From a virus, in IMG/VR virus record IMGVR_UViG_3300029268_000784, positions 1 to 23,440 of that record: a DNA stretch of 23,440 bases; one strand, 5' to 3'. Positions 1 to 20,602 of this stretch are shown here, in pieces; position 1 is the stretch's first letter; each line of letters starts with the position of its first letter. A program made the position numbers and the translations under genes. The notes beneath the pieces were generated by a model. That model did no database searches. It was given only the letters and a program-made list of their open reading frames with translations, and was not told the origin of the DNA.

Positions 1-569
1 TTTTTTTGAGTAATACGATCGCAGATCGATACCCATCGTACTCTAGGATCAGATCCATTTTGGGATAAAAGTGGCCGATTTAACTCCGTTCTTTGTAACA
101 TTGCAAGATATTCTTTGGGGACTGTGCCTTTGTTAGAGGGTAGAAGTATGTCTGACTGGTCATCTCTTGCAAGTTTTGCACATTGATCTATAAGCTCGCA
201 CCGTGCATTATCTGCGTTAGTAATATGTGTACCTTCAGGTCGCCCATTTCGTATATTATGAAACGCATCAAGAAGTGGAGGACGAAGAATAAGCGGAACA
301 GTCCGGACATGTATATTATCGAGTACATGATCTCTACGTATCCTTTGGTTAAACTTTGAGTTAGCAACCACCAGCTCATACCCTTTTGAGAGTCCTGTGT
401 GGATTGAGTCTAGTATCTCTCTTTCCCAGTTGTTTACCTTACTTTGTGGATTGTATACTGCACCAAAATCGAAGTTGTAACAACTATCTCCGTAAAGAGA
501 TTGTATGGCAAGGCCAAGAGTTGACTTCCCAACTCCAGATACTCCACCTATTAGTAGTACTGTTTGCAT
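1..569 (-). CDS. P-loop kinase-like NTPase, 3' end cut by window edge
   Basis: An open leftward frame starts at ATG 569-567 and runs off the left edge after 189 codons without a stop. Residues 7-17 (IGGVSGVGKST) are a clear Walker A loop right at the N-terminus, as in small P-loop kinases of the shikimate/gluconate/AAA_33 type. I see no firm lid or substrate motif, so the substrate is unknown. It follows the HD-domain gene by one base and belongs to the same leftward operon. A role in nucleotide or nucleic-acid phosphorylation is inference only. Confidence 0.6.
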   Translation of the reverse strand, partial: MQTVLLIGGVSGVGKSTLGLAIQSLYGDSCYNFDFGAVYNPQSKVNNWEREILDSIHTGLSKGYELVVANSKFNQRIRRDHVLDNIHVRTVPLILRPPLLDAFHNIRNGRPEGTHITNADNARCELIDQCAKLARDDQSDILLPSNKGTVPKEYLAMLQRTELNRPLLSQNGSDPRVRWVSICDRITQK

Positions 570-570
570 A

Positions 571-1017
571 TTATTGACAAGAACGAATAGGGTCATCTTC
601 ACTTATCTTCCAAAATCGTGATTTCTTAATAAATGACTTCTTTTTCTTGTCGTCCCATGAATTCATACGAGAGATGTTATGAGCCTGATCGCAAAGCTTG
701 ATAGCTATTGCCCAATGGCTATGAAGATGTGGAAAATATGACCCCTTCTCTTTGTTTTTAACGTGGGTGAGTTCTTTTACAAGCTCGGCTACATCTGTTC
801 CAAATTCATTCAATAACTGCTCGTATGTTGCATTAGTATCTTCTAAGGTATCATGAAGATAAGCACCAGCAACTACGTAATCAGGCGGATCTAACAACTT
901 AACCATATTGGCCACACTCATACAGTGGTAACAATAAGGAACACCGTCATCATCTGTTTGATTAAGATGCTTTTCAATTACAAACTTTAGTGTTTTTAAC
1001 TCTAGTGTTCCATCCAT
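571..1017 (-). CDS. HD-domain phosphohydrolase, SpoT/MESH1-like (possible alarmone hydrolase)
   Basis: The 148-residue protein carries the HD signature of ppGpp hydrolases: H31 (HCMSVANM), H55-D56 inside HDTLEDT with E59-D60, an FGTDVAELV helix, and D110/N114 in KLCDQAHNISRM, which matches the KLADRxHN motif of SpoT and MESH1. It is one HD domain with no synthetase or TGS domain, so a stand-alone hydrolase is expected, acting on (p)ppGpp or another nucleotide in the cytoplasm. The start has one of the few good Shine-Dalgarno sites in the window (GAGGAG, 7 nt upstream). The family is fairly sure; the substrate is inferred. Confidence 0.75.
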   Translation of the reverse strand: MDGTLELKTLKFVIEKHLNQTDDDGVPYCYHCMSVANMVKLLDPPDYVVAGAYLHDTLEDTNATYEQLLNEFGTDVAELVKELTHVKNKEKGSYFPHLHSHWAIAIKLCDQAHNISRMNSWDDKKKKSFIKKSRFWKISEDDPIRSCQ

Positions 1018-10143: not shown

Positions 10144-10333
10144 AATTCATTATTAAACTTCTAACCTCCAAAAGTAAGTCATTATATACAGTTATCAGTC
10201 TATTTGCATTATCTTCATTCATCATGTCCATCGGATATTGTCTACCGAATTGAGCGTAGGTATATGAGATGTGGTTGATCTCGTTTAGAAGTCCTTTTAG
10301 TTTTAGCAGTTTAGCTTGAGTTTCAATATTCAT
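10112..10333 (-). CDS. Small hypothetical protein, first leftward gene
   Basis: A 73-residue, mainly helical protein without a recognised family. It is the first gene after promoter P1 and overlaps the DnaD-like gene by 32 bp in a different frame. Its place suggests an early role in replication or regulation. Confidence 0.5.
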   Translation of the reverse strand: MNIETQAKLLKLKGLLNEINHISYTYAQFGRQYPMDMMNEDNANRLITVYNDLLLEVRSLIMNYENSRVDKTT

Positions 10334-10343
10334 AATTAGGATA

Positions 10344-10378
10344 ATAATATACTATTTTTTGTAGAATGTAAATACCGA
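10344..10378 (-). promoter_or_regulatory. Leftward promoter P1, divergent member of the P1-P4 set
   Basis: On the minus strand: AATTTCGG, then TATTTACA with -35 TTTACA (10372-10367), followed by TATTAT (10349-10344, 17-bp spacer) or TATATT (15-bp spacer) as the -10. It keeps the -35 and the AATTT box of P2-P4 but has a weaker -10. It drives the first leftward gene and the DnaD-like gene. Confidence 0.6.
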
Positions 10379-10400
10379 AATTATCTTATCCTAGTAACCT

Positions 10401-10437
10401 AAAAAACCCCATAGGAAAAATGAAAAACCAATGGGGT
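10401..10437 (-). terminator. Hairpin plus U-tract facing left
   Basis: Inverted repeat ACCCCAT (10406-10412) / ATGGGGT (10431-10437), extended by two G-C pairs past one mismatch, with an AT loop. On the minus strand the stem is followed directly by TTTTT, as in an intrinsic terminator. It lies upstream of P1, so it would stop leftward transcripts coming from the right half. On the plus strand there is no U-tract. Confidence 0.5.
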
Positions 10438-10485
10438 AGCTTTCGCCACACCTATTATACAAAATCCCCTCAAGCGAGACCCGCA

Positions 10486-10513
10486 GGTTTTACTTTTGGG
10501 GTTGAATTATAAT
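10486..10513 (+). promoter_or_regulatory. Possible rightward promoter
   Basis: A TATAAT box lies at 10508-10513, 44 nt before the NinG start, with a poor -35 (GGTTTT at 10486-10491, 16-bp spacer; or TTTTAC with a short spacer). It is the only good -10 upstream of the whole rightward block, but the missing -35 suggests it may need an activator. The AATTT box of the leftward promoters is absent. Confidence 0.4.
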
Positions 10514-10557
10514 ATAGGTATTGCAGTGGGAAAGCAAATAGTTTATGATTTACTAAA

Positions 10558-11070
10558 ATGAAAAAGCCTACACTAAAATCCGCGAAAGCGAAAGCAAGGT
10601 ACAATTTCAAGGCATATATCAGGGTGAGAGATGCTTTAGCAACTACAAAATCAGTCAATTATTGTATTTGCTGTACCTGTGAAAAGACTACCAGGTTAGA
10701 TGGCTCACTTCATGCAGGACACTTCACCCAAGGCTCGCATAATTCTACCTATTTTGAAGAAACAAACGTACATGGTCAATGTCTTACAAAGGAAAGTAAT
10801 ATCTTAATGTTTAACGGAGTATCTAAAAGTATTAAAGACATAAGAAAAGGAGACAAACTATGGGCATTTCATAAAGAAACATACGAAAAGACAAAAAGTG
10901 AAGTATTAGATACAGCACATTTCATCCCAAAAGATTTATATAAAGTTGAACTAGAAAATGGAAAATGTTTCTATGCTACGGGAGATCATAAAGTTGTCGC
11001 AAATAAAAAATGGGTATCAATATATGATATGTTGCATAACCAGTTAGCGTATGATATAAGTGAAGCATGA
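10558..11070 (+). CDS. NinG/Rap N-terminal part fused to N-half of a split intein
   Basis: Residues 1-74 are the N-terminal part of a lambda NinG/Rap-like recombination protein: CICC-TC cysteines at 36-41, then LHAGHFTQGS and NVHGQ. At Cys75 the sequence changes to an intein N-segment: block A (CLTKESNILMFNG, SIKDIRKGDKLW) and block B (T141-G-D-H144, the TxxH motif). It stops at 11068-11070 after 96 intein residues, with no C-segment. The partner is 11570-11860. In trans the halves should splice and give a 137-residue NinG, joining ...VHGQ to CSTCN... NinG acts on recombination intermediates. The ATGA stop/start couples it to the endonuclease gene. Confidence 0.9.
   Translation: MKKPTLKSAKAKARYNFKAYIRVRDALATTKSVNYCICCTCEKTTRLDGSLHAGHFTQGSHNSTYFEETNVHGQCLTKESNILMFNGVSKSIKDIRKGDKLWAFHKETYEKTKSEVLDTAHFIPKDLYKVELENGKCFYATGDHKVVANKKWVSIYDMLHNQLAYDISEA
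10780..11067 (+). other. Split-intein N-segment (IntN, 96 aa)
   Basis: It begins with nucleophile Cys1 (codon 10780-10782) directly after Gln74 of NinG. Block A and block B (T67xxH70 in intein numbering) are present, at almost the same spacing as in Npu DnaE (T69xxH72). The ends are set by NinG homology on the left and the stop codon on the right. Confidence 0.85.
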
Positions 11071-11573
11071 AAGCATTATTTGACGAAACAGAATATACAA
11101 AATGGTATATAAGTGACGAGGGTAAGTTATATTCGATTACAACATATAATAGATCGGATAATAGAAATCGGACTCTCCATGAGGTCAAACCAAACATTAA
11201 CAAAGCTAGGGGATATTTATACGCACGAACAGCAAATAGGAATTACCAAATTCATAGATTAGTAGCCTCTGCATTTATACCAAATCCAAATAATAAGAAA
11301 TATGTCAATCATAAAGACGGAAACAAACACAATAATCATAAAAACAATCTTGAGTGGTGTACAGCAGTAGAAAATGCACAACACGCATTAAAAGTGGGAC
11401 TTACCACACAATTAAAGAAAAACGAAGGTAATATAAAATATAGTCTATATCAATGTAGGGGAGTTGTTGAACTAATAAGAGGAGGGATGAGTTACAAGAA
11501 AGCGGGAGCTAAATATAACATGCCATATTCGACTGTTGCACATTTGATGCGTGGAAGTAGAAGATCACTATGA
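11067..11573 (+). CDS. Free-standing NUMOD4/HNH homing endonuclease between the intein halves
   Basis: The 168-residue protein has an N-terminal NUMOD4-like part (residues 8-24, EYTKWYISDEGKLYSI), an HNH nuclease core at 60-112 (IHRLVASAFIPNPNN, VNHKDGNKHNN, NLEWCTAVENAQHA), and a C-terminal helix-turn-helix (about 130-165, SYKKAGAKYNMPYSTVAHLM), the usual phage homing-endonuclease order. Its ATG overlaps the IntN stop and its stop overlaps the IntC start, both as ATGA. It sits where an ordinary intein carries its endonuclease domain. It most likely cuts intein-free NinG genes and so spreads the whole cassette. Confidence 0.85.
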   Translation: MKALFDETEYTKWYISDEGKLYSITTYNRSDNRNRTLHEVKPNINKARGYLYARTANRNYQIHRLVASAFIPNPNNKKYVNHKDGNKHNNHKNNLEWCTAVENAQHALKVGLTTQLKKNEGNIKYSLYQCRGVVELIRGGMSYKKAGAKYNMPYSTVAHLMRGSRRSL

Positions 11574-11668
11574 AAATAATCAAGATTACTAAAGTAAAAC
11601 CAAAAACTGTATATGCGATTAAGACGACATCTAAGACATATATAGCTGACGGTTTACTTCATCATAAT
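11570..11668 (+). other. Split-intein C-segment (IntC, 33 aa)
   Basis: From Met1 to the cyclising Asn33 (codon 11666-11668); the next codon 11669-11671 is the +1 Cys of the NinG part. With IntN the whole intein is 129 residues, the size of a mini-intein with no endonuclease domain of its own. Confidence 0.85.
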
Positions 11669-11860
11669 TGCTCAACTTGTAACCGATTCTATCATGGGAG
11701 GTTAGATAAATACCTTATGTTCATGTTAAGAAAATACGGACAGGCCGAAGTAGATAGATTGTATACATTAAATGGACAAACAGTAATATATAAAATTGCA
11801 GATTATGAACGAATAGCATTGTTTTATAAAGAAAAGTTAGAAAAACTATTACTCAAATGA
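11570..11860 (+). CDS. C-half of a split intein fused to NinG/Rap C-terminal part
   Basis: Residues 1-33 are an intein C-segment: block F (VYAIKTTSKTYIADGLL) and block G (HHN with penultimate His32 and terminal Asn33), followed by Cys34 as the +1 nucleophile. Residues 34-96 are the NinG C-terminal part: CSTCNRFYHGRLDKY and LRKYGQAEVDRLY, as in NinG proteins where QCxxCN follows the NVxG region. Thus splicing rebuilds the second CxxC zinc site, with its first Cys supplied by this +1 Cys. The 33-residue C-segment is like that of other natural split inteins (DnaE type, 35-36). It overlaps both neighbours by ATGA. Confidence 0.9.
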   Translation: MKIIKITKVKPKTVYAIKTTSKTYIADGLLHHNCSTCNRFYHGRLDKYLMFMLRKYGQAEVDRLYTLNGQTVIYKIADYERIALFYKEKLEKLLLK

Positions 11861-12162
11861 CATATCTAGCACCAGACGGACAAGAATGGCAAAGCAAAAA
11901 GATATATCTCAAATACCACAAAAATCAAAAAGAAATAAAGAAACGAAAAGAAGACAGGGAGAACGGAAAACGAGATCACAAGAGAGTGCCCCTTTATGGA
12001 TACTATCGAAATCCAAAAGTAGCAGCATATCAAAAAAAGACATGTGAGAGATGCGAAGAAAGAATAGCAGTAACCACAACCTGGGATGGAAGAATAGTTT
12101 GTCATCCGTGCCACCTATCAATTCTTGATGAGTATGATTCAGACATTCAAGCTCGGAAGTAA
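11857..12162 (+). CDS. Small zinc-ribbon protein
   Basis: A 101-residue protein with a very basic N-terminal half and a C-terminal zinc ribbon: C63-x2-C66 (CERC) and C82-x2-C85 (CHPC). It overlaps the NinG C-part by ATGA, so it is co-translated. It is likely nucleic-acid binding; the true partner is unknown. Confidence 0.55.
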   Translation: MTYLAPDGQEWQSKKIYLKYHKNQKEIKKRKEDRENGKRDHKRVPLYGYYRNPKVAAYQKKTCERCEERIAVTTTWDGRIVCHPCHLSILDEYDSDIQARK

Positions 12163-12457
12163 GGAACATAGCTATCAATTCATTCAGTCAGGGAGAGTAA
12201 GACTGTGTACGATCTGTCATTCCGTAATCAGAGACACAAACAGAATGGACCATGTAAAGTGCTATGAAAAGAAGCAAAAGAGATTAGAAAAAGTATTTGA
12301 TATTCCAAATTACATAAAAAAGCGAAAAGATAACAATTATGAGGGGTATTTAAGAGAACTAGAAGAAATTAATAGTAAAAAGCAATACTTTACTCAAGAA
12401 TATATAGACGGAAGGATAAAGTATCTAGCATCAAAAATTAACGAATACCAACTATGA
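12128..12457 (+). CDS. Small C2HC zinc-finger-like protein
   Basis: The 109-residue protein has C27-x2-C30 (CTIC), H42 and C45, a C2HC zinc-knuckle-like set, and a helical, charged C-terminal half. The start was set at ATG 12128 (12134 also possible; a TTG lies at 12125). It overlaps the previous gene by about 35 bp and the glycosyltransferase gene by ATGA. Function unknown. Confidence 0.5.
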   Translation: MSMIQTFKLGSKEHSYQFIQSGRVRLCTICHSVIRDTNRMDHVKCYEKKQKRLEKVFDIPNYIKKRKDNNYEGYLRELEEINSKKQYFTQEYIDGRIKYLASKINEYQL

Positions 12458-13401
12458 GGTTTTGTTTATACGGCAACTTTTCAGTATCTTACTGTTCAGA
12501 GCAACACCACGCTCTATCTTTAGAGGCGTTAGGACATAAGGTGATAAGATTACAGGAGACTGAGATTACTACAAACCTAGTTTTAGAGACATCGTTACAG
12601 TCTGATGCACTTATTTGGATTCATTCGCATGGGTTTGTTAATAAGGGAACGTTGTCAATGGAGCAGGTATTAGACACTTTGAGAGAGAGAGGGATACCGA
12701 CACTCGCCTATCACCTTGACTTATACATGGGGATCGAAAGATGGAACGAGTATAAGAACTCACCCTACCTTAATAAACTTCAACATTTCTTTACCGTAGA
12801 TAAACTCATGGCAGAATGGTTGAATAAGAATACTAAGACTAAAGGACACTTCGTACCTGCGGGAGTATTACACGAAGAATGCTATAGTCTCGATCTACCA
12901 AAAAGATATGACGTAGTGTTCACAGGCTCGAAAGGATATCATAGGGAATGGAGTTATCGACCCAAACTTATTGAATGGCTTAGAATGACCTATGGTGATA
13001 GGTTTTACCACTTTGGTGGAGATGGACTAGGAGTCGTCAGAGGTCACGAGCTGAACAAATTATATTCACAGTCAAAGGTCGTGGTAGGCGACACACTATG
13101 TCCCAATTTTACATATCCATGGTATTCAAGTGATCGTCTATGGGATACGCTTGGTAGAAATGGATTTCTAATCTATCCAGAAATATACGGCTTGTCCAAT
13201 TACTTCACAAATGACAAAGATCTTGTATACTATACATACGGAGACTTTGAGGGTCTTAAAAAAAAGATAGATTATTATCTTGATCCAAAAAACGAATATG
13301 AACGAGAAACAATTAGAAGAACAGGGCATGAAAGATGTAAAAAGGAAGGCACGTATTATCACCGTTGGGGGGAAATTATTAAGACTGTGTACAATTTGTA
13401 A
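12454..13401 (+). CDS. CgeB/YkvP-like glycosyltransferase
   Basis: The 315-residue GT-B-type protein has the Glyco_trans_1_2 C-terminal domain (about residues 225-315): SSDRLWDTLGRNGFLIYPE, GDFEGLKKKIDYYL, ERETIRRTGHERCKKEGTYYHRW. These are the features of CgeB/YkvP-type transferases found in spore and phage cargo regions. The N-terminal half holds a GT-B Rossmann-like part (FHDxHxx-like IWIHSHG, YHLDLY). Substrate unknown: perhaps a virion protein, a host surface glycan or DNA. Its last about 50 residues recur in 14095-14370. It is overlapped at its 3' end by an HNH gene. Confidence 0.75.
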   Translation: MRFCLYGNFSVSYCSEQHHALSLEALGHKVIRLQETEITTNLVLETSLQSDALIWIHSHGFVNKGTLSMEQVLDTLRERGIPTLAYHLDLYMGIERWNEYKNSPYLNKLQHFFTVDKLMAEWLNKNTKTKGHFVPAGVLHEECYSLDLPKRYDVVFTGSKGYHREWSYRPKLIEWLRMTYGDRFYHFGGDGLGVVRGHELNKLYSQSKVVVGDTLCPNFTYPWYSSDRLWDTLGRNGFLIYPEIYGLSNYFTNDKDLVYYTYGDFEGLKKKIDYYLDPKNEYERETIRRTGHERCKKEGTYYHRWGEIIKTVYNL

Positions 13402-14095
13402 TAGAAAACATAGTGGACATGGATATTGTGAGGGTCATAGGAGAATGTGGCTAAAACATGGAGACCCATTAAAAAAAGGAGTATCAAGCACAAGGTTTAG
13501 AAAAGGACAAATAGCATCGAATAAAAAATGGTTTAACAAAAATTGTAAGGTGAATGGGTGTGAAGATAAATCTAATGGAGGAATGGGTATGTGCCATACG
13601 CATTATATGAATTATTGGAGATACGGAAACCCTATACACGAAAAAAAAAGAATTGTTGGTGGGACAGCTTTAGACAGATTTAATTTCTGGCATAAAAAAC
13701 AAGTGAATGGATGCTGGGAATGGCAAGGAGCACTTGATAAAAGAGGATATGGAAGAATTATTGATGATACTAATTGGAGAGATATGGCTCATAGGTGGTC
13801 ATATAAACATTTTATTGGAAATATACCCAGTGGATTAGTAATAGATCATTTATGTCACAATCCAAAATGTGTCAATCCAAAACACTTGGAGCCAGTTACA
13901 TATAGACAAAACACCATTGAAAGAGGAGTAACCAATGCATCACATTTGAACTCAAAAAAGACTCATTGTCTTAGAGGGCACGAATTAACAGAAAACAATA
14001 TCTATATTGGAAAGGGAAGATATGGCAACATGAGAGTCTGTAAAATATGTCATAAAGAAAGAGTTAAAAAATATCTATTAAAGAAAAAGGGATAA
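13328..14095 (+). CDS. HNH endonuclease with N-terminal zinc-finger motifs
   Basis: The 255-residue protein has two C-x-H-type fingers (C21-x2-C24...C34-x2-H37, and a repeat CEDKSNGGMGMCHTHY), then an HNH_3 domain (MAHRWSYKHFIGNIPSGLVI, HLCHNPKCVNPKHLEP, about 155-200) and a Cys-rich C-terminus (HCLRGH, CKICH). This is a common stand-alone phage homing endonuclease. The ATG at 13328 lies 74 bp inside the glycosyltransferase gene; ATGs at 13298 and TTG-like starts at 13280 are alternatives. Its stop TAA overlaps the next ATG (TAATG). Confidence 0.8.
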   Translation: MKDVKRKARIITVGGKLLRLCTICNRKHSGHGYCEGHRRMWLKHGDPLKKGVSSTRFRKGQIASNKKWFNKNCKVNGCEDKSNGGMGMCHTHYMNYWRYGNPIHEKKRIVGGTALDRFNFWHKKQVNGCWEWQGALDKRGYGRIIDDTNWRDMAHRWSYKHFIGNIPSGLVIDHLCHNPKCVNPKHLEPVTYRQNTIERGVTNASHLNSKKTHCLRGHELTENNIYIGKGRYGNMRVCKICHKERVKKYLLKKKG

Positions 14096-14370
14096 TGGCA
14101 GACTATACTCAAGACGCTTGCCTAGTCGGATGTACATCGTGTGTGTCCAGAGAACAGCGAGAGATTAATAGATTAAAATTACTCAGAGTGAAAAACATAA
14201 TTACAGGCGGATCAGGATTTGTAGGATTAAAAAATACGATAGACTATTATTTAGAAAATGACGAAAAACGAGAATCAATAAGAAGGAGAGGATTTGAACG
14301 TACTAAAAAAGATCACACATATCTAAACCGTTGGCAATATATTATTAAAACAATTTATGAAAAAACCTAA
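14095..14370 (+). CDS. Chimeric small protein: CxxC head plus CgeB-like C-terminal fragment
   Basis: The 91-residue protein has two parts of different origin. Residues 8-33 (GCTSCVSREQREINRLKLL) match the small CxxC protein encoded at 14357-14479. Residues 41-91 ([39 protein letters not shown]) match the C-terminus of the glycosyltransferase 12454-13401. It reads like the collapsed remnant of a second glycosyltransferase copy fused to the CxxC gene. It may be non-functional although the frame is intact. Confidence 0.6.
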   Translation: MADYTQDACLVGCTSCVSREQREINRLKLLRVKNIITGGSGFVGLKNTIDYYLENDEKRESIRRRGFERTKKDHTYLNRWQYIIKTIYEKT

Positions 14371-18131: not shown

Positions 18132-18571
18132 AACTTATAGATATTAAATCTAATCCTTCAAATCCTAGATTCATAAGAGATGAAAACTACAAAAAACTAG
18201 TCAAATCAATCAAGGACTTCCCCGAAATGAGAGATATACGAGAGATAGTTGTAAACAAAGATATGGTAATACTTGGTGGAAATATGAGGTTTAGAGCGAT
18301 GCAAGAAGCAGGAATAAATGAAGCACAAGTAAAGATAGTCGACTTAAGTGAAGAAAAGCAAAAAGAGTTTATTATTAAAGATAATCTCGAAAGCGGAGAA
18401 ATGGATTGGGATAAACTAGCAAATGAATGGGAGCAAGAAAAGCTAGTTGAGTGGGGAGTAAAGTTGCCAAGCTGGGATAAGATCGAAGAGGAGAAGAAAG
18501 AGCAAGGAAAAAAGGAAGAGAGCGGTTATATAACCTGTCCGTCATGCGGACTTGAGTTTGAGAAAAAATGA
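18113..18571 (+). CDS. ParB/Srx-like nuclease-fold protein with zinc tail
   Basis: The 152-residue protein has the ParB N-terminal domain: IKSNPSNPRFIRDENYKKLV, then ILGGNMRFRAMQEAG (about 53-67, the GxxRxxA box), and DLSEEKQKEF. A C-terminal CPSC (142-145) with CGLEF suggests a small zinc finger. Phages often keep such ParB-like proteins just before a methylase and terminase, as here, where they modulate DNA modification or packaging. It overlaps the methylase by ATGA. Confidence 0.75.
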   Translation: MEIRTVKLIDIKSNPSNPRFIRDENYKKLVKSIKDFPEMRDIREIVVNKDMVILGGNMRFRAMQEAGINEAQVKIVDLSEEKQKEFIIKDNLESGEMDWDKLANEWEQEKLVEWGVKLPSWDKIEEEKKEQGKKEESGYITCPSCGLEFEKK

Positions 18572-19545
18572 ATAATCTTGGAATACCATACATGGGTAGT
18601 AAGAGAAAGCTAGCCACAGATATTCTGCTGTTCATGATAAGAAAAAATCCAACAGCAACAAAGATATATGACATATTCGGAGGAGGAGGAGCAATATCAT
18701 TTACAGCCTTACAAATGCCACAATTTGAAGCTGTCACATACAATGAACTCGACAGAAGGATATTCTCTCTTGTTGAGTACATTAAAAATGCACAAAAACA
18801 CAAAAAAGATCATCTAGAGCTGTACAAACTAGGTCAGGTGTACGAAGATAAGTTGTATGAGTGGGTGTCGAGAGACAGATTCAAAAAAGAGGTGGCTGAA
18901 GAGGGATGGTATGCGGGATTCTTACAGTCGGTCTGGACGTTTGGGAATAGAGGGACAAGTTATCTATTCGGCAAAGAAATAGAAGAATACAAAAGACTAG
19001 GACACATGGTCGCAGTTTACAGAGACGAAGAGTCTTTCGGGAAGTTAAAAGTAATACTTCCAAGCCTACCGAAACTAATACTTAGCAAAAATACAATCTA
19101 TCAAAGAAGATTGATTATCTTCCAATGCGCAACAGAGAGGAAATACAAAGAACTCCAGCAACTCCAGCAACTCGAGCGACTCCAGCAACTCCAGCAACTC
19201 CAGCAACTCGAGCAACTCCAGCAACTCGAGCAACTCCAGCGACTCGAGATAACAAATCTATCATACGCAGACATCGACCCCAAGAGCTTTGACGAGAAAT
19301 CAATAGTTTATCTCGATCCTCCATATATAAATACTGCATCATATAAAGAGGATGGGATAAGCCACGATGATTTATATAAATGGATTGCGGGAATAGAAGT
19401 ACCAGTATATCTATCAAGTTATGAGTCGCCACTCAAACCTGTAAAAGCGATGAATCACAGGACAACTTTATCAGCAGTACCACGAGAAAAAGAAAAGTCA
19501 GAAAGAACTGAATGGTTATTTTGGAATGGGAAAAGTATAATATAA
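18568..19545 (+). CDS. Dam-like (D12 class) DNA adenine methyltransferase
   Basis: The 325-residue protein has the N6-adenine methylase motifs of the D12 class: start GIPYMGSKRKLA, AdoMet motif IFGGGGAISF (36-45), catalytic motif DPPY (250-253) followed by INTASYKEDG, and a C-terminal RTEWLFWNGK. A repeat tract of Leu-Gln-Gln/Glu units (residues 196-227) lies between motif I and DPPY, in or near the target-recognition region. It would protect phage DNA from host restriction or mark it for packaging. Antisense frames over the tract are shadows. Confidence 0.9.
   Translation: MNNLGIPYMGSKRKLATDILLFMIRKNPTATKIYDIFGGGGAISFTALQMPQFEAVTYNELDRRIFSLVEYIKNAQKHKKDHLELYKLGQVYEDKLYEWVSRDRFKKEVAEEGWYAGFLQSVWTFGNRGTSYLFGKEIEEYKRLGHMVAVYRDEESFGKLKVILPSLPKLILSKNTIYQRRLIIFQCATERKYKELQQLQQLERLQQLQQLQQLEQLQQLEQLQRLEITNLSYADIDPKSFDEKSIVYLDPPYINTASYKEDGISHDDLYKWIAGIEVPVYLSSYESPLKPVKAMNHRTTLSAVPREKEKSERTEWLFWNGKSII
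19153..19248 (+). repeat. In-frame 9-bp tandem repeat inside the methylase
   Basis: Ten 9-bp units of CTC(C/G)AG(C)(A/G)A form, such as CTCCAGCAA and CTCGAGCAA, plus a final CTCGAG. They encode (Leu-Gln-Gln, Leu-Glu-Gln, Leu-Gln-Arg and Leu-Glu-Arg) triplets, residues 196-227. All units are a multiple of three, so gain or loss of copies keeps the frame. Confidence 0.9.
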
Positions 19546-19547
19546 TC

Positions 19548-19931
19548 ATGGACACTCAACAAACTACCACAGATCAGGAAAATATCAGGGACGAGAAGGG
19601 TAGATTTGTACCTGGCGTAAGTGGTAATCCAGGAGGAAGACCAAAGGACGATACCAAGATTACATACTGGTTAGAAAAGTATCTACAAGGTGTAAATCCT
19701 AAGAGCCCAGATGGTAAGAAAAGAATACAGGAGCTCGCAGAAAAACTTGCTGGTATGGCATATGGAGGCAATACTGTTGCTATGAGCATGGTATTGGACA
19801 GAATAGACGGCAAAGTCCCACAATCTACAGACATCACATCAGGTGGAAAACCAATAGAAAATCCTCTTATAATTTCCACCATAAAACCACGAGATGTTAT
19901 ATCTGAAACCCAAACAGAAGAAAGTAGTTGA
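19548..19931 (+). CDS. DUF5681-type putative small terminase
   Basis: The 127-residue protein has the N-terminal box GRFVPGVSGNPGGRPK (about 18-33), the mark of DUF5681, and the later DGKVPQSTDITSGGKPI typical of these phage proteins just before large terminase. It likely acts as the small terminase that binds the pac site, by position and motif. The start was set at ATG 19548; an in-frame upstream GTG at 19512 would overlap the methylase. Confidence 0.7.
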   Translation: MDTQQTTTDQENIRDEKGRFVPGVSGNPGGRPKDDTKITYWLEKYLQGVNPKSPDGKKRIQELAEKLAGMAYGGNTVAMSMVLDRIDGKVPQSTDITSGGKPIENPLIISTIKPRDVISETQTEESS

Positions 19932-19972
19932 ACTGGGACAATACCAGTCTTATCACATGGTATAATGTCTTA

Positions 19973-20602
19973 ATGATATTAAAATACTACCGTTGTGAAC
20001 ATTGTTCAAAATATGCACCATTAAAAAAGGGGGATAAGCCTAAAAAATACTGCAGTCGATCATGTAAAGAAAAAGCATATTATTATAGAAGAAAGAATAA
20101 TGAACCTTACAGATACAACCTTCACGGTCTAAGTAGCCATCTATTATATTCAACCTGGGAAGAAATGATGGCACGATGTTATAACCCTAATCGTCCGAAA
20201 TATAATAATTATGGTGGTAGAGGTATTATAGTTTGTGAGCGATGGCACAACGCAGAAAATTTTATAAAAGATATAGAAAAAATGCCAAAAGAAAATATAA
20301 ATATGACTCTTGATAGAATTGATAATAATGGTAATTATTCACCAGATAATATAAGATGGGCAAGTCAAACAATGCAGAATTTCAATCAAAGGGTAAGACT
20401 AGATAATAGTAGTGGATATAAAGGTATAGGTTTTGATAAGTACAGAAAAAAATGGACTGCGAGACTTATGCTAAATGGTGTGATATTGTTACAAAAAAGA
20501 TACCTTACGCTTCAAGAGGCTATTGATGCAAGAGAAATTGCATATAATAAATATGTTAAGTTTGAAAAAAAAACAAGTAAGAGCGGTAGAGCTAGCAAAT
20601 GA
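19973..20602 (+). CDS. HNH endonuclease with AP2 DNA-binding domain
   Basis: The 209-residue protein has an N-terminal zinc ribbon (C8, C11, C27, C31), an HNH block (about 48-130: STWEEMMARCYNPNRPKY, YGGRGIIVCERW, TLDRIDNNGNYSPDNIRWA) and a C-terminal AP2 domain (146-197: SSGYKGIGFDKYRKKWTARL, TLQEAIDAR). This is the usual free-standing HNH-AP2 mobile endonuclease of phages. It stands between the small terminase and the large terminase and overlaps the TerL start by about 50 bp. The start at ATG 19973; an in-frame TTG at 19928 is less likely. Confidence 0.8.
   Translation: MILKYYRCEHCSKYAPLKKGDKPKKYCSRSCKEKAYYYRRKNNEPYRYNLHGLSSHLLYSTWEEMMARCYNPNRPKYNNYGGRGIIVCERWHNAENFIKDIEKMPKENINMTLDRIDNNGNYSPDNIRWASQTMQNFNQRVRLDNSSGYKGIGFDKYRKKWTARLMLNGVILLQKRYLTLQEAIDAREIAYNKYVKFEKKTSKSGRASK

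What the first reader, a model, noticed from the sequence alone, without database searches (positions are those of the whole stretch)
10558..11860. A NinG recombination gene broken by a split intein, with a free HNH homing endonuclease gene nested exactly between the halves
Three frames chained by ATGA overlaps read as NinG(1-74)-IntN(96 aa), HNH endonuclease (168 aa), IntC(33 aa)-NinG(63 aa). IntN starts with Cys1, has block A and TxxH block B. IntC has blocks F/G, His-Asn and a +1 Cys. NinG homology on both sides joins seamlessly: NVHGQ + CSTCN rebuilds the QCxxCN zinc site. Known split inteins include the DnaE type and environmental 'fractured genes' (gp41, NrdA, NrdJ, IMPDH hosts) that sometimes keep an endonuclease in between. 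I do not recall NinG as a host. The insertion sits in the metal-binding Cys pair, so unspliced halves should be dead. The double ATGA suggests that an ordinary intein with an inserted endonuclease domain was cut into three translation units.
Basis: partly seen in the sequence, partly recalled or inferred. Interest (0 to 1): 0.95.

Follow-up and report, generated by a model that had tools for sequence, protein, structure and literature searches.

The report
Split intein with endonuclease in NinG
An uncultured phage's recombination gene ninG is cut into two genes that each end in half of a self-splicing protein (an intein), with a probable DNA-cutting homing enzyme encoded between them; the layout is known from other phage genes, but I found no report of it in ninG.

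Summary
Three plus-strand ORFs joined by 4-nt ATGA overlaps encode NinG(1-74)+IntN(96 aa), a 168-aa HNH endonuclease, and IntC(33 aa)+NinG(63 aa). IntN passes the curated NCBIfam intein cut-off. IntN+IntC joined passes Pfam Intein_splicing, which neither half does alone. IntC is the window's best hit to an independently built IntC profile (0 of about 2,000 shuffles match). The joined NinG halves score 64 bits (25.5 and 33.2 apart), and intein-free relatives read EETNVHGQCxxCN across the junction. A near-identical second contig carries the same locus unchanged, so an assembly frameshift is unlikely. Best reading: a class-1 naturally split intein that rebuilds NinG by trans-splicing, with an I-HmuI-type HNH homing endonuclease gene inside it. 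This is the known 'fractured gene' architecture: the closest phage IntNs sit in similarly split uvsW, nrdA and DNA polymerase genes, and phage MIJ3 polB has a split intein plus HNH. New are the host gene and the finding that NinG is a recurrent intein host: contiguous LAGLIDADG-type inteins sit three codons downstream in five other loci. Splicing and cleavage are untested; two accessory block F positions are non-consensus.

The parts
10558..10779 (+). N-extein: NinG residues 1-74 (…EETNVHGQ)
   Evidence: PF05766 25.5 bits, PHROG 171/5034 NinG/Rap; aligns to intein-free NinG L004, L005 and others
10780..11067 (+). IntN, 96 aa, followed by TGA 11068-11070: Cys1, block A CLTKESNIL, block B TGDH
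   Evidence: TIGR01445 30.1 bits over cut-off 24.5; joined with IntC passes PF14890; alignment A2
11067..11573 (+). HNH homing endonuclease ORF, 168 aa (weak NUMOD4, HNH_3, weak C-terminal HTH), ATGA overlaps at both ends
   Evidence: PF13392 28.5 bits; PHROG 59 3e-36; I-HmuI (1u3e) 1e-8
11570..11668 (+). IntC, 33 aa, blocks F/G ending …HHN
   Evidence: IntC profile built from other hosts: 28.4 bits, E 4.7e-7 in the six-frame window, 0 of 1,987 scored shuffles; alignment A3
11669..11860 (+). C-extein: NinG residues 75-137, +1 Cys (CSTCN…), stop included
   Evidence: PF05766 33.2 bits; joined NinG 64.0 bits; intein-free relatives continue as C-xx-CN

Best explanation
A naturally split class-1 intein sits in the ninG (Rap, Holliday-junction endonuclease family) gene of an uncultured tailed phage. 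NinG-N-IntN and IntC-NinG-C are made as two proteins from one message. The intein halves pair, Cys1 and Cys+1 carry out the acyl shifts, Asn33 of IntC cyclises, and the product is a seamless 137-residue NinG whose CxxC metal site is rebuilt from both halves. The HNH gene between the halves is a homing endonuclease that probably cuts ninG alleles without the insert, so that the whole cassette is copied into them. Shown: the anatomy, the domain homology, the exact empty site in relatives, and conservation in a second contig. Inferred: trans-splicing, NinG activity, target and homing.
For: TIGR01445 over cut-off with Cys1 at profile position 1. IntN+IntC joined reaches PF14890 36.3 bits against a cut-off of 35.8, and NF038136 rises from 31.9 to 46.5 bits. 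IntC statistics. The split lies where gp41-1 and the UvsW and NrdA split inteins divide. NinG halves 25.5 and 33.2 bits become 64. Empty site in L004 and L005. Locus identical in a second contig. HNH_3 over cut-off and I-HmuI similarity. Same layout in uvsW of Salmonella phage CF-SP2 and nrdA of Campylobacter phage CC_R7, and in phage MIJ3 polB with an HNH (PMC6892783).
Against: No experiment. Block F positions 4 and 13, usually Asp and His though less conserved (PMC4031507), are Ala and Ser/Lys here. The AlphaFold model of ORF1 is poor (pLDDT 46), so its intein-led fold matches are weak support. IntN is not net acidic as in the two compared split inteins (+1 against -7 and -7). Only one phage lineage carries this exact arrangement.
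Confidence: 0.88

Rival explanations
1. Genes-in-pieces without splicing: the two NinG halves associate non-covalently and work as two chains, as reported for the Aeh1 ribonucleotide reductase, and the intein halves are inert relics.
For: A precedent exists for a homing endonuclease splitting a phage gene into two working peptides (cited in PMC10448857). Block F:4 and F:13 are non-consensus.
Against: Core splicing residues Cys1, T-x-x-H, penultimate His, Asn and +1 Cys are all intact. The cut runs through a CxxC pair that needs both Cys side by side. The insert is exactly seamless.
Confidence: 0.06
2. A single contiguous NinG-intein-HNH protein, produced by two programmed -1 frameshifts or hidden by two sequencing errors.
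For: The HNH frame is -1 relative to IntN, and IntC is -1 relative to HNH, as any ATGA overlap gives.
Against: No slippery heptamer before either stop. Sequence identical in a second, non-identical contig. ATGA overlaps are common at other junctions here. IntC starts with Met at the place where other split IntC genes do.
Confidence: 0.02
3. The intein and split are real, but the HNH gene is an unrelated free-standing selfish gene that landed there and targets another site; it plays no part in intein homing.
For: Its closest relatives are free-standing or lie between other phage genes, and two more HNH genes lie in the same window.
Against: Its place, exactly between IntN and IntC at the position where endonucleases sit in inteins, recurs with other endonuclease-like ORFs in split uvsW and polB.
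Confidence: 0.2

Closest known systems
Fractured genes / naturally split inteins of phages (Dassa et al. 2009, title and references seen only as cited in held papers)
   Same: Extein gene in two ORFs carrying IntN and IntC, with an endonuclease ORF between; hosts are DNA-metabolism genes
Pseudomonas phage MIJ3 DNA polymerase B split intein with HNH orf154 (PMC6892783)
   Different: Different host gene and a Ser1-type intein motif (SVDGST…) against Cys1 here; sequences not compared directly
Salmonella phage CF-SP2 uvsW_1 / uvsW_2 and Campylobacter phage CC_R7 nrdA split inteins
   Same: Nearest IntN sequences among phage records (about 30% identity); same split point and Met-initiated IntC; ORF(s) between the halves
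   Different: Other host genes; the middle ORF of uvsW has NUMOD3 and a TnsA-like nuclease match, those of nrdA have no Pfam hit
NinG contiguous inteins L009, L171, L175, L176, L177
   Same: Same host protein, same metal-binding CxxC loop, Cys1 and +1 Cys
   Different: Not split (L177 is cut by the contig end); LAGLIDADG-like endonuclease inside one ORF; inserted before the second Cys (ECRH|CNRF), three codons downstream of this site
I-HmuI (PDB 1u3e)
   Same: HNH homing endonuclease fold, E 1e-8 over 99 residues
   Different: I-HmuI is intron-encoded (own knowledge); this one lies between intein halves

Membership tests
Intein (Hint, class 1) | Profile match to intein splicing domain above curated cut-off | tested here: met
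   TIGR01445 30.1 against 24.5 for the ORF as encoded; PF14890 36.3 against 35.8 once the halves are joined, 27.3 for ORF1 alone
Intein (Hint, class 1) | Cys/Ser1, block B TxxH, C-terminal His-Asn, Cys/Ser/Thr +1 | tested here: met
   C75 of ORF1, TGDH, HHN, C34 of ORF3
Intein (Hint, class 1) | Block F:4 Asp and F:13 His (less conserved) | tested here: not met
   VYAIKTTSKTY: Ala and Ser/Lys; these positions are described as less conserved, so this is not a disqualifying feature
Intein (Hint, class 1) | Removal restores the host protein exactly | tested here: met
   Joined NinG 64 bits and aligns without gap at the junction to L004, L005 and others
Intein (Hint, class 1) | Splices | not testable with these tools
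   Needs co-expression and mass spectrometry
Naturally split intein / fractured gene | Halves in separate ORFs, split between blocks B and F | tested here: met
   IntN 96 aa and IntC 33 aa; UvsW 97/35 and NrdA 96/33
Naturally split intein / fractured gene | Endonuclease gene between the halves | tested here: met
   HNH_3 28.5 against 24.8
Naturally split intein / fractured gene | Trans-splicing | not testable with these tools
   Experiment needed
HNH homing endonuclease (I-HmuI / PHROG 59 type) | HNH catalytic motif intact and family match | tested here: met
   NHKDGNKHNNHKNNLEW; PHROG 59 3.2e-36, 1u3e 1.1e-8
HNH homing endonuclease (I-HmuI / PHROG 59 type) | NUMOD4 and C-terminal HTH DNA-binding parts | tested here: inconclusive
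   NUMOD4 20.6 against 23.4 and HTH_psq 18.5 against 20.4, both just below cut-off
HNH homing endonuclease (I-HmuI / PHROG 59 type) | Cuts the intein-free allele | not testable with these tools
   Experiment needed
NinG / Rap | Family match and invariant Cys/His/Asn motif | tested here: met
   64 bits joined (cut-off 25.4); all 17 columns invariant in A1 are kept

The most novel reading that the evidence does not exclude
NinG is a repeated target of protein-splicing elements: unrelated or distantly related inteins have independently taken two sites three codons apart, each beginning at a different metal-ligand Cys, and in this phage a free-standing HNH endonuclease has taken over the mobility of an already split intein (collaborative homing at the protein-splicing level).
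Probability: 0.35. Interest if true: 0.55.

Novelty: new member of a known kind. Interest (0 to 1): 0.45.

Why it matters
It adds a recombination nuclease to the hosts of naturally split inteins, at a site where an unspliced product should be inactive, and supplies a natural split pair (96 + 33 aa, Cys1, +1 Cys) that can be tested for trans-splicing. Together with the contiguous NinG inteins three codons downstream, it gives a small system for asking how split inteins and nested endonuclease genes arise at one target. The mechanism itself is already known.

Tried and rejected
Assembly error or frameshift: rejected because a non-identical twin contig is unchanged over 10301-12500 and no slippery heptamer precedes the stops. 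Chance IntC: rejected. Second intact ninG in the same contig: none found, only the two halves matched. More NinG inteins at the same site: two patterns over IMG/VR returned only the twin contig or false positives in an exonuclease-like gene. IntN profile scan of IMG/VR not possible because the alignment was too diverse. AlphaFold model of ORF1: pLDDT 46, not relied on, although 15 of its 16 best PDB matches are inteins or bacterial intein-like domains or Hedgehog Hint domains, none with E below 0.001. Close phage relatives: none in the phage records by megablast. gp41-1 IntC against phage records: no hit; the joined intein against plasmids: no hit. 393 genomes of the order of L171: no further copy of its intein. 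Dassa et al. 2009 is not held.

Full report
What is in the sequence. The window is an uncultured tailed-phage contig (G000 is a virus record; terminase and portal genes). At 10558-11860 three plus-strand ORFs follow each other with ATGA overlaps at 11067 and 11570. Their translations are NinG 1-74 + IntN 96 aa, an HNH protein of 168 aa, and IntC 33 aa + NinG 75-137. All numbers in the finding are right.

Is it more than chance. NCBIfam TIGR01445 (intein N-terminal region) scores 30.1 bits against a cut-off of 24.5, beginning at Cys75 of ORF1. The pieces are better together than apart: IntN+IntC passes Pfam Intein_splicing (36.3 against a cut-off of 35.8; ORF1 alone 27.3), and NF038136 rises from 31.9 to 46.5 bits. 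NinG goes from 25.5 and 33.2 bits to 64.0. IntC is too short for the public models, so I built a profile from eight IntC sequences of other hosts. In the six-frame translation of the window the only inclusion-level hit is the IntC ORF (E 4.7e-7), and none of 1,987 scored shuffles approaches it (28.4 against at most 9.1 bits).

The junction. NinG relatives without an insert read EETNVHGQCRGCN (L004) and EETNVHGQCVPCN (L005). The window reads EETNVHGQ | intein | CSTCN. Both Cys of the CxxC and the following Asn are invariant in the alignment of seven NinGs. The insert therefore lies exactly before a conserved Cys, which is also the +1 nucleophile, and the two extein pieces cannot supply the intact metal site separately (inference from the motif).

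Is it an error. A second IMG/VR contig, 99.57% identical over 12 kb and thus not a copy of the same record, is identical over 10301-12500. Eight of the 18 listed plus-strand junctions in this window are 4-nt overlaps, so the ATGA links are how this phage joins its genes. No slippery heptamer precedes the two stops. Translation as three separate chains is the best reading.

The endonuclease. The middle ORF matches HNH_3 above its cut-off, PHROG 59 at 3e-36 and the solved homing endonuclease I-HmuI at 1e-8, with an intact HNH motif; NUMOD4 and HTH parts are just below their cut-offs. Its phage relatives (33-37% identity among the best) are free-standing or lie beside genes such as DNA polymerase and terminase.

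Relatives of the intein. Among phage records the best matches of the joined intein include the Salmonella CF-SP2 group UvsW, Salicola phage SCTP-2, a gut phage contig, Campylobacter phage NrdA and a Vibrio phage DNA polymerase. In CF-SP2, uvsW is split as uvsW-IntN, an ORF with NUMOD3 and TnsA-like nuclease matches, then IntC-uvsW. In CC_R7, nrdA-IntN and IntC-nrdA flank two ORFs without Pfam matches. In Vibrio phage VmeM-32 IntN and IntC lie in different frames of the polymerase gene. Their IntN and IntC lengths (97/35 and 96/33) match those here (96/33). Published phage MIJ3 has an HNH gene between the halves of a split intein in polB (PMC6892783). The architecture, even with an HNH, is therefore known.

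NinG as an intein host. The gut-phage hit (L009) proved to be NinG itself, with a contiguous intein of 285 aa containing a LAGLIDADG-like segment (…GWIAGMIDADG…) and placed before the second Cys of the same CxxC (ECRH | CNRF); an intein-free Bacteroides phage NinG (L013) shows that empty site. A survey of 160 NinG loci (the best 80 each from IMG/VR and GTDB genomes) found one more, L171 in a Bacteroidaceae MAG, 63% identical over the whole protein. A pattern scan added L175, L176 and L177 (L177 is cut by the end of the contig). No other insert at the first Cys was found. The survey is capped and pattern-based, so absence is not proof. No held paper connects NinG with inteins; a database annotation I cannot see may.

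How it works, with steps marked. Shown: gene layout, intein halves with the core splicing residues, exact reconstitution of NinG, HNH family. Inferred: the halves bind and splice in trans; spliced NinG is the active form; the HNH cuts intein-free ninG and drives copying of the cassette. Against: block F positions 4 and 13 are Ala and Ser/Lys instead of the usual Asp and His, positions described as less conserved (PMC4031507), so splicing may be slow or need testing. Whether the HNH invaded a split intein or is the detached endonuclease of a former contiguous intein is open; membership in an otherwise free-standing family favours invasion slightly.

Verdict. Real, correctly read, a new host for a known architecture.

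Noticed in passing
L009:3045-4409; L171:2372-3721; L175:6036-7373 (-); L176:1370-2734 (-); L177 near 554-592 (-): Contiguous LAGLIDADG-type inteins in NinG, inserted before the second Cys of the CxxC pair, in a gut phage contig, a Bacteroidaceae MAG and three IMG/VR records; no report found in the held papers.
   Followed up: yes
window 12454-14370: A second HNH gene (13280-14095, PHROG 826) overlaps the end of a glycosyltransferase-like ORF (12454-13401); the short ORF after it (14095-14370) repeats that ORF's C-terminal sequence (…LKxxIDYYL…RWxxIIKTxY), as if the endonuclease had landed between an old and a new copy of the gene's 3' end.
   Followed up: no
window 19928-20602: A third HNH endonuclease (PHROG 374) directly upstream of the large terminase gene.
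   Followed up: no
window 18568-19545: A DNA adenine methylase-like ORF carries an internal run of Leu-Gln-Gln-type repeats (…LQQLQQLERLQQLQQ…).
   Followed up: no
window, gene starts on both strands: Few starts have a recognisable Shine-Dalgarno motif (most are AT-rich, such as …taaact ATG), which may point to a Bacteroidota- or Patescibacteria-like host; one NinG relative (L101) is from a Candidatus Paceibacterota MAG.
   Followed up: partly
L010:1903-3873: Salicola phage SCTP-2 gp204, annotated hypothetical, is a RecA/UvsX-like protein that appears to hold two mini-inteins.
   Followed up: no
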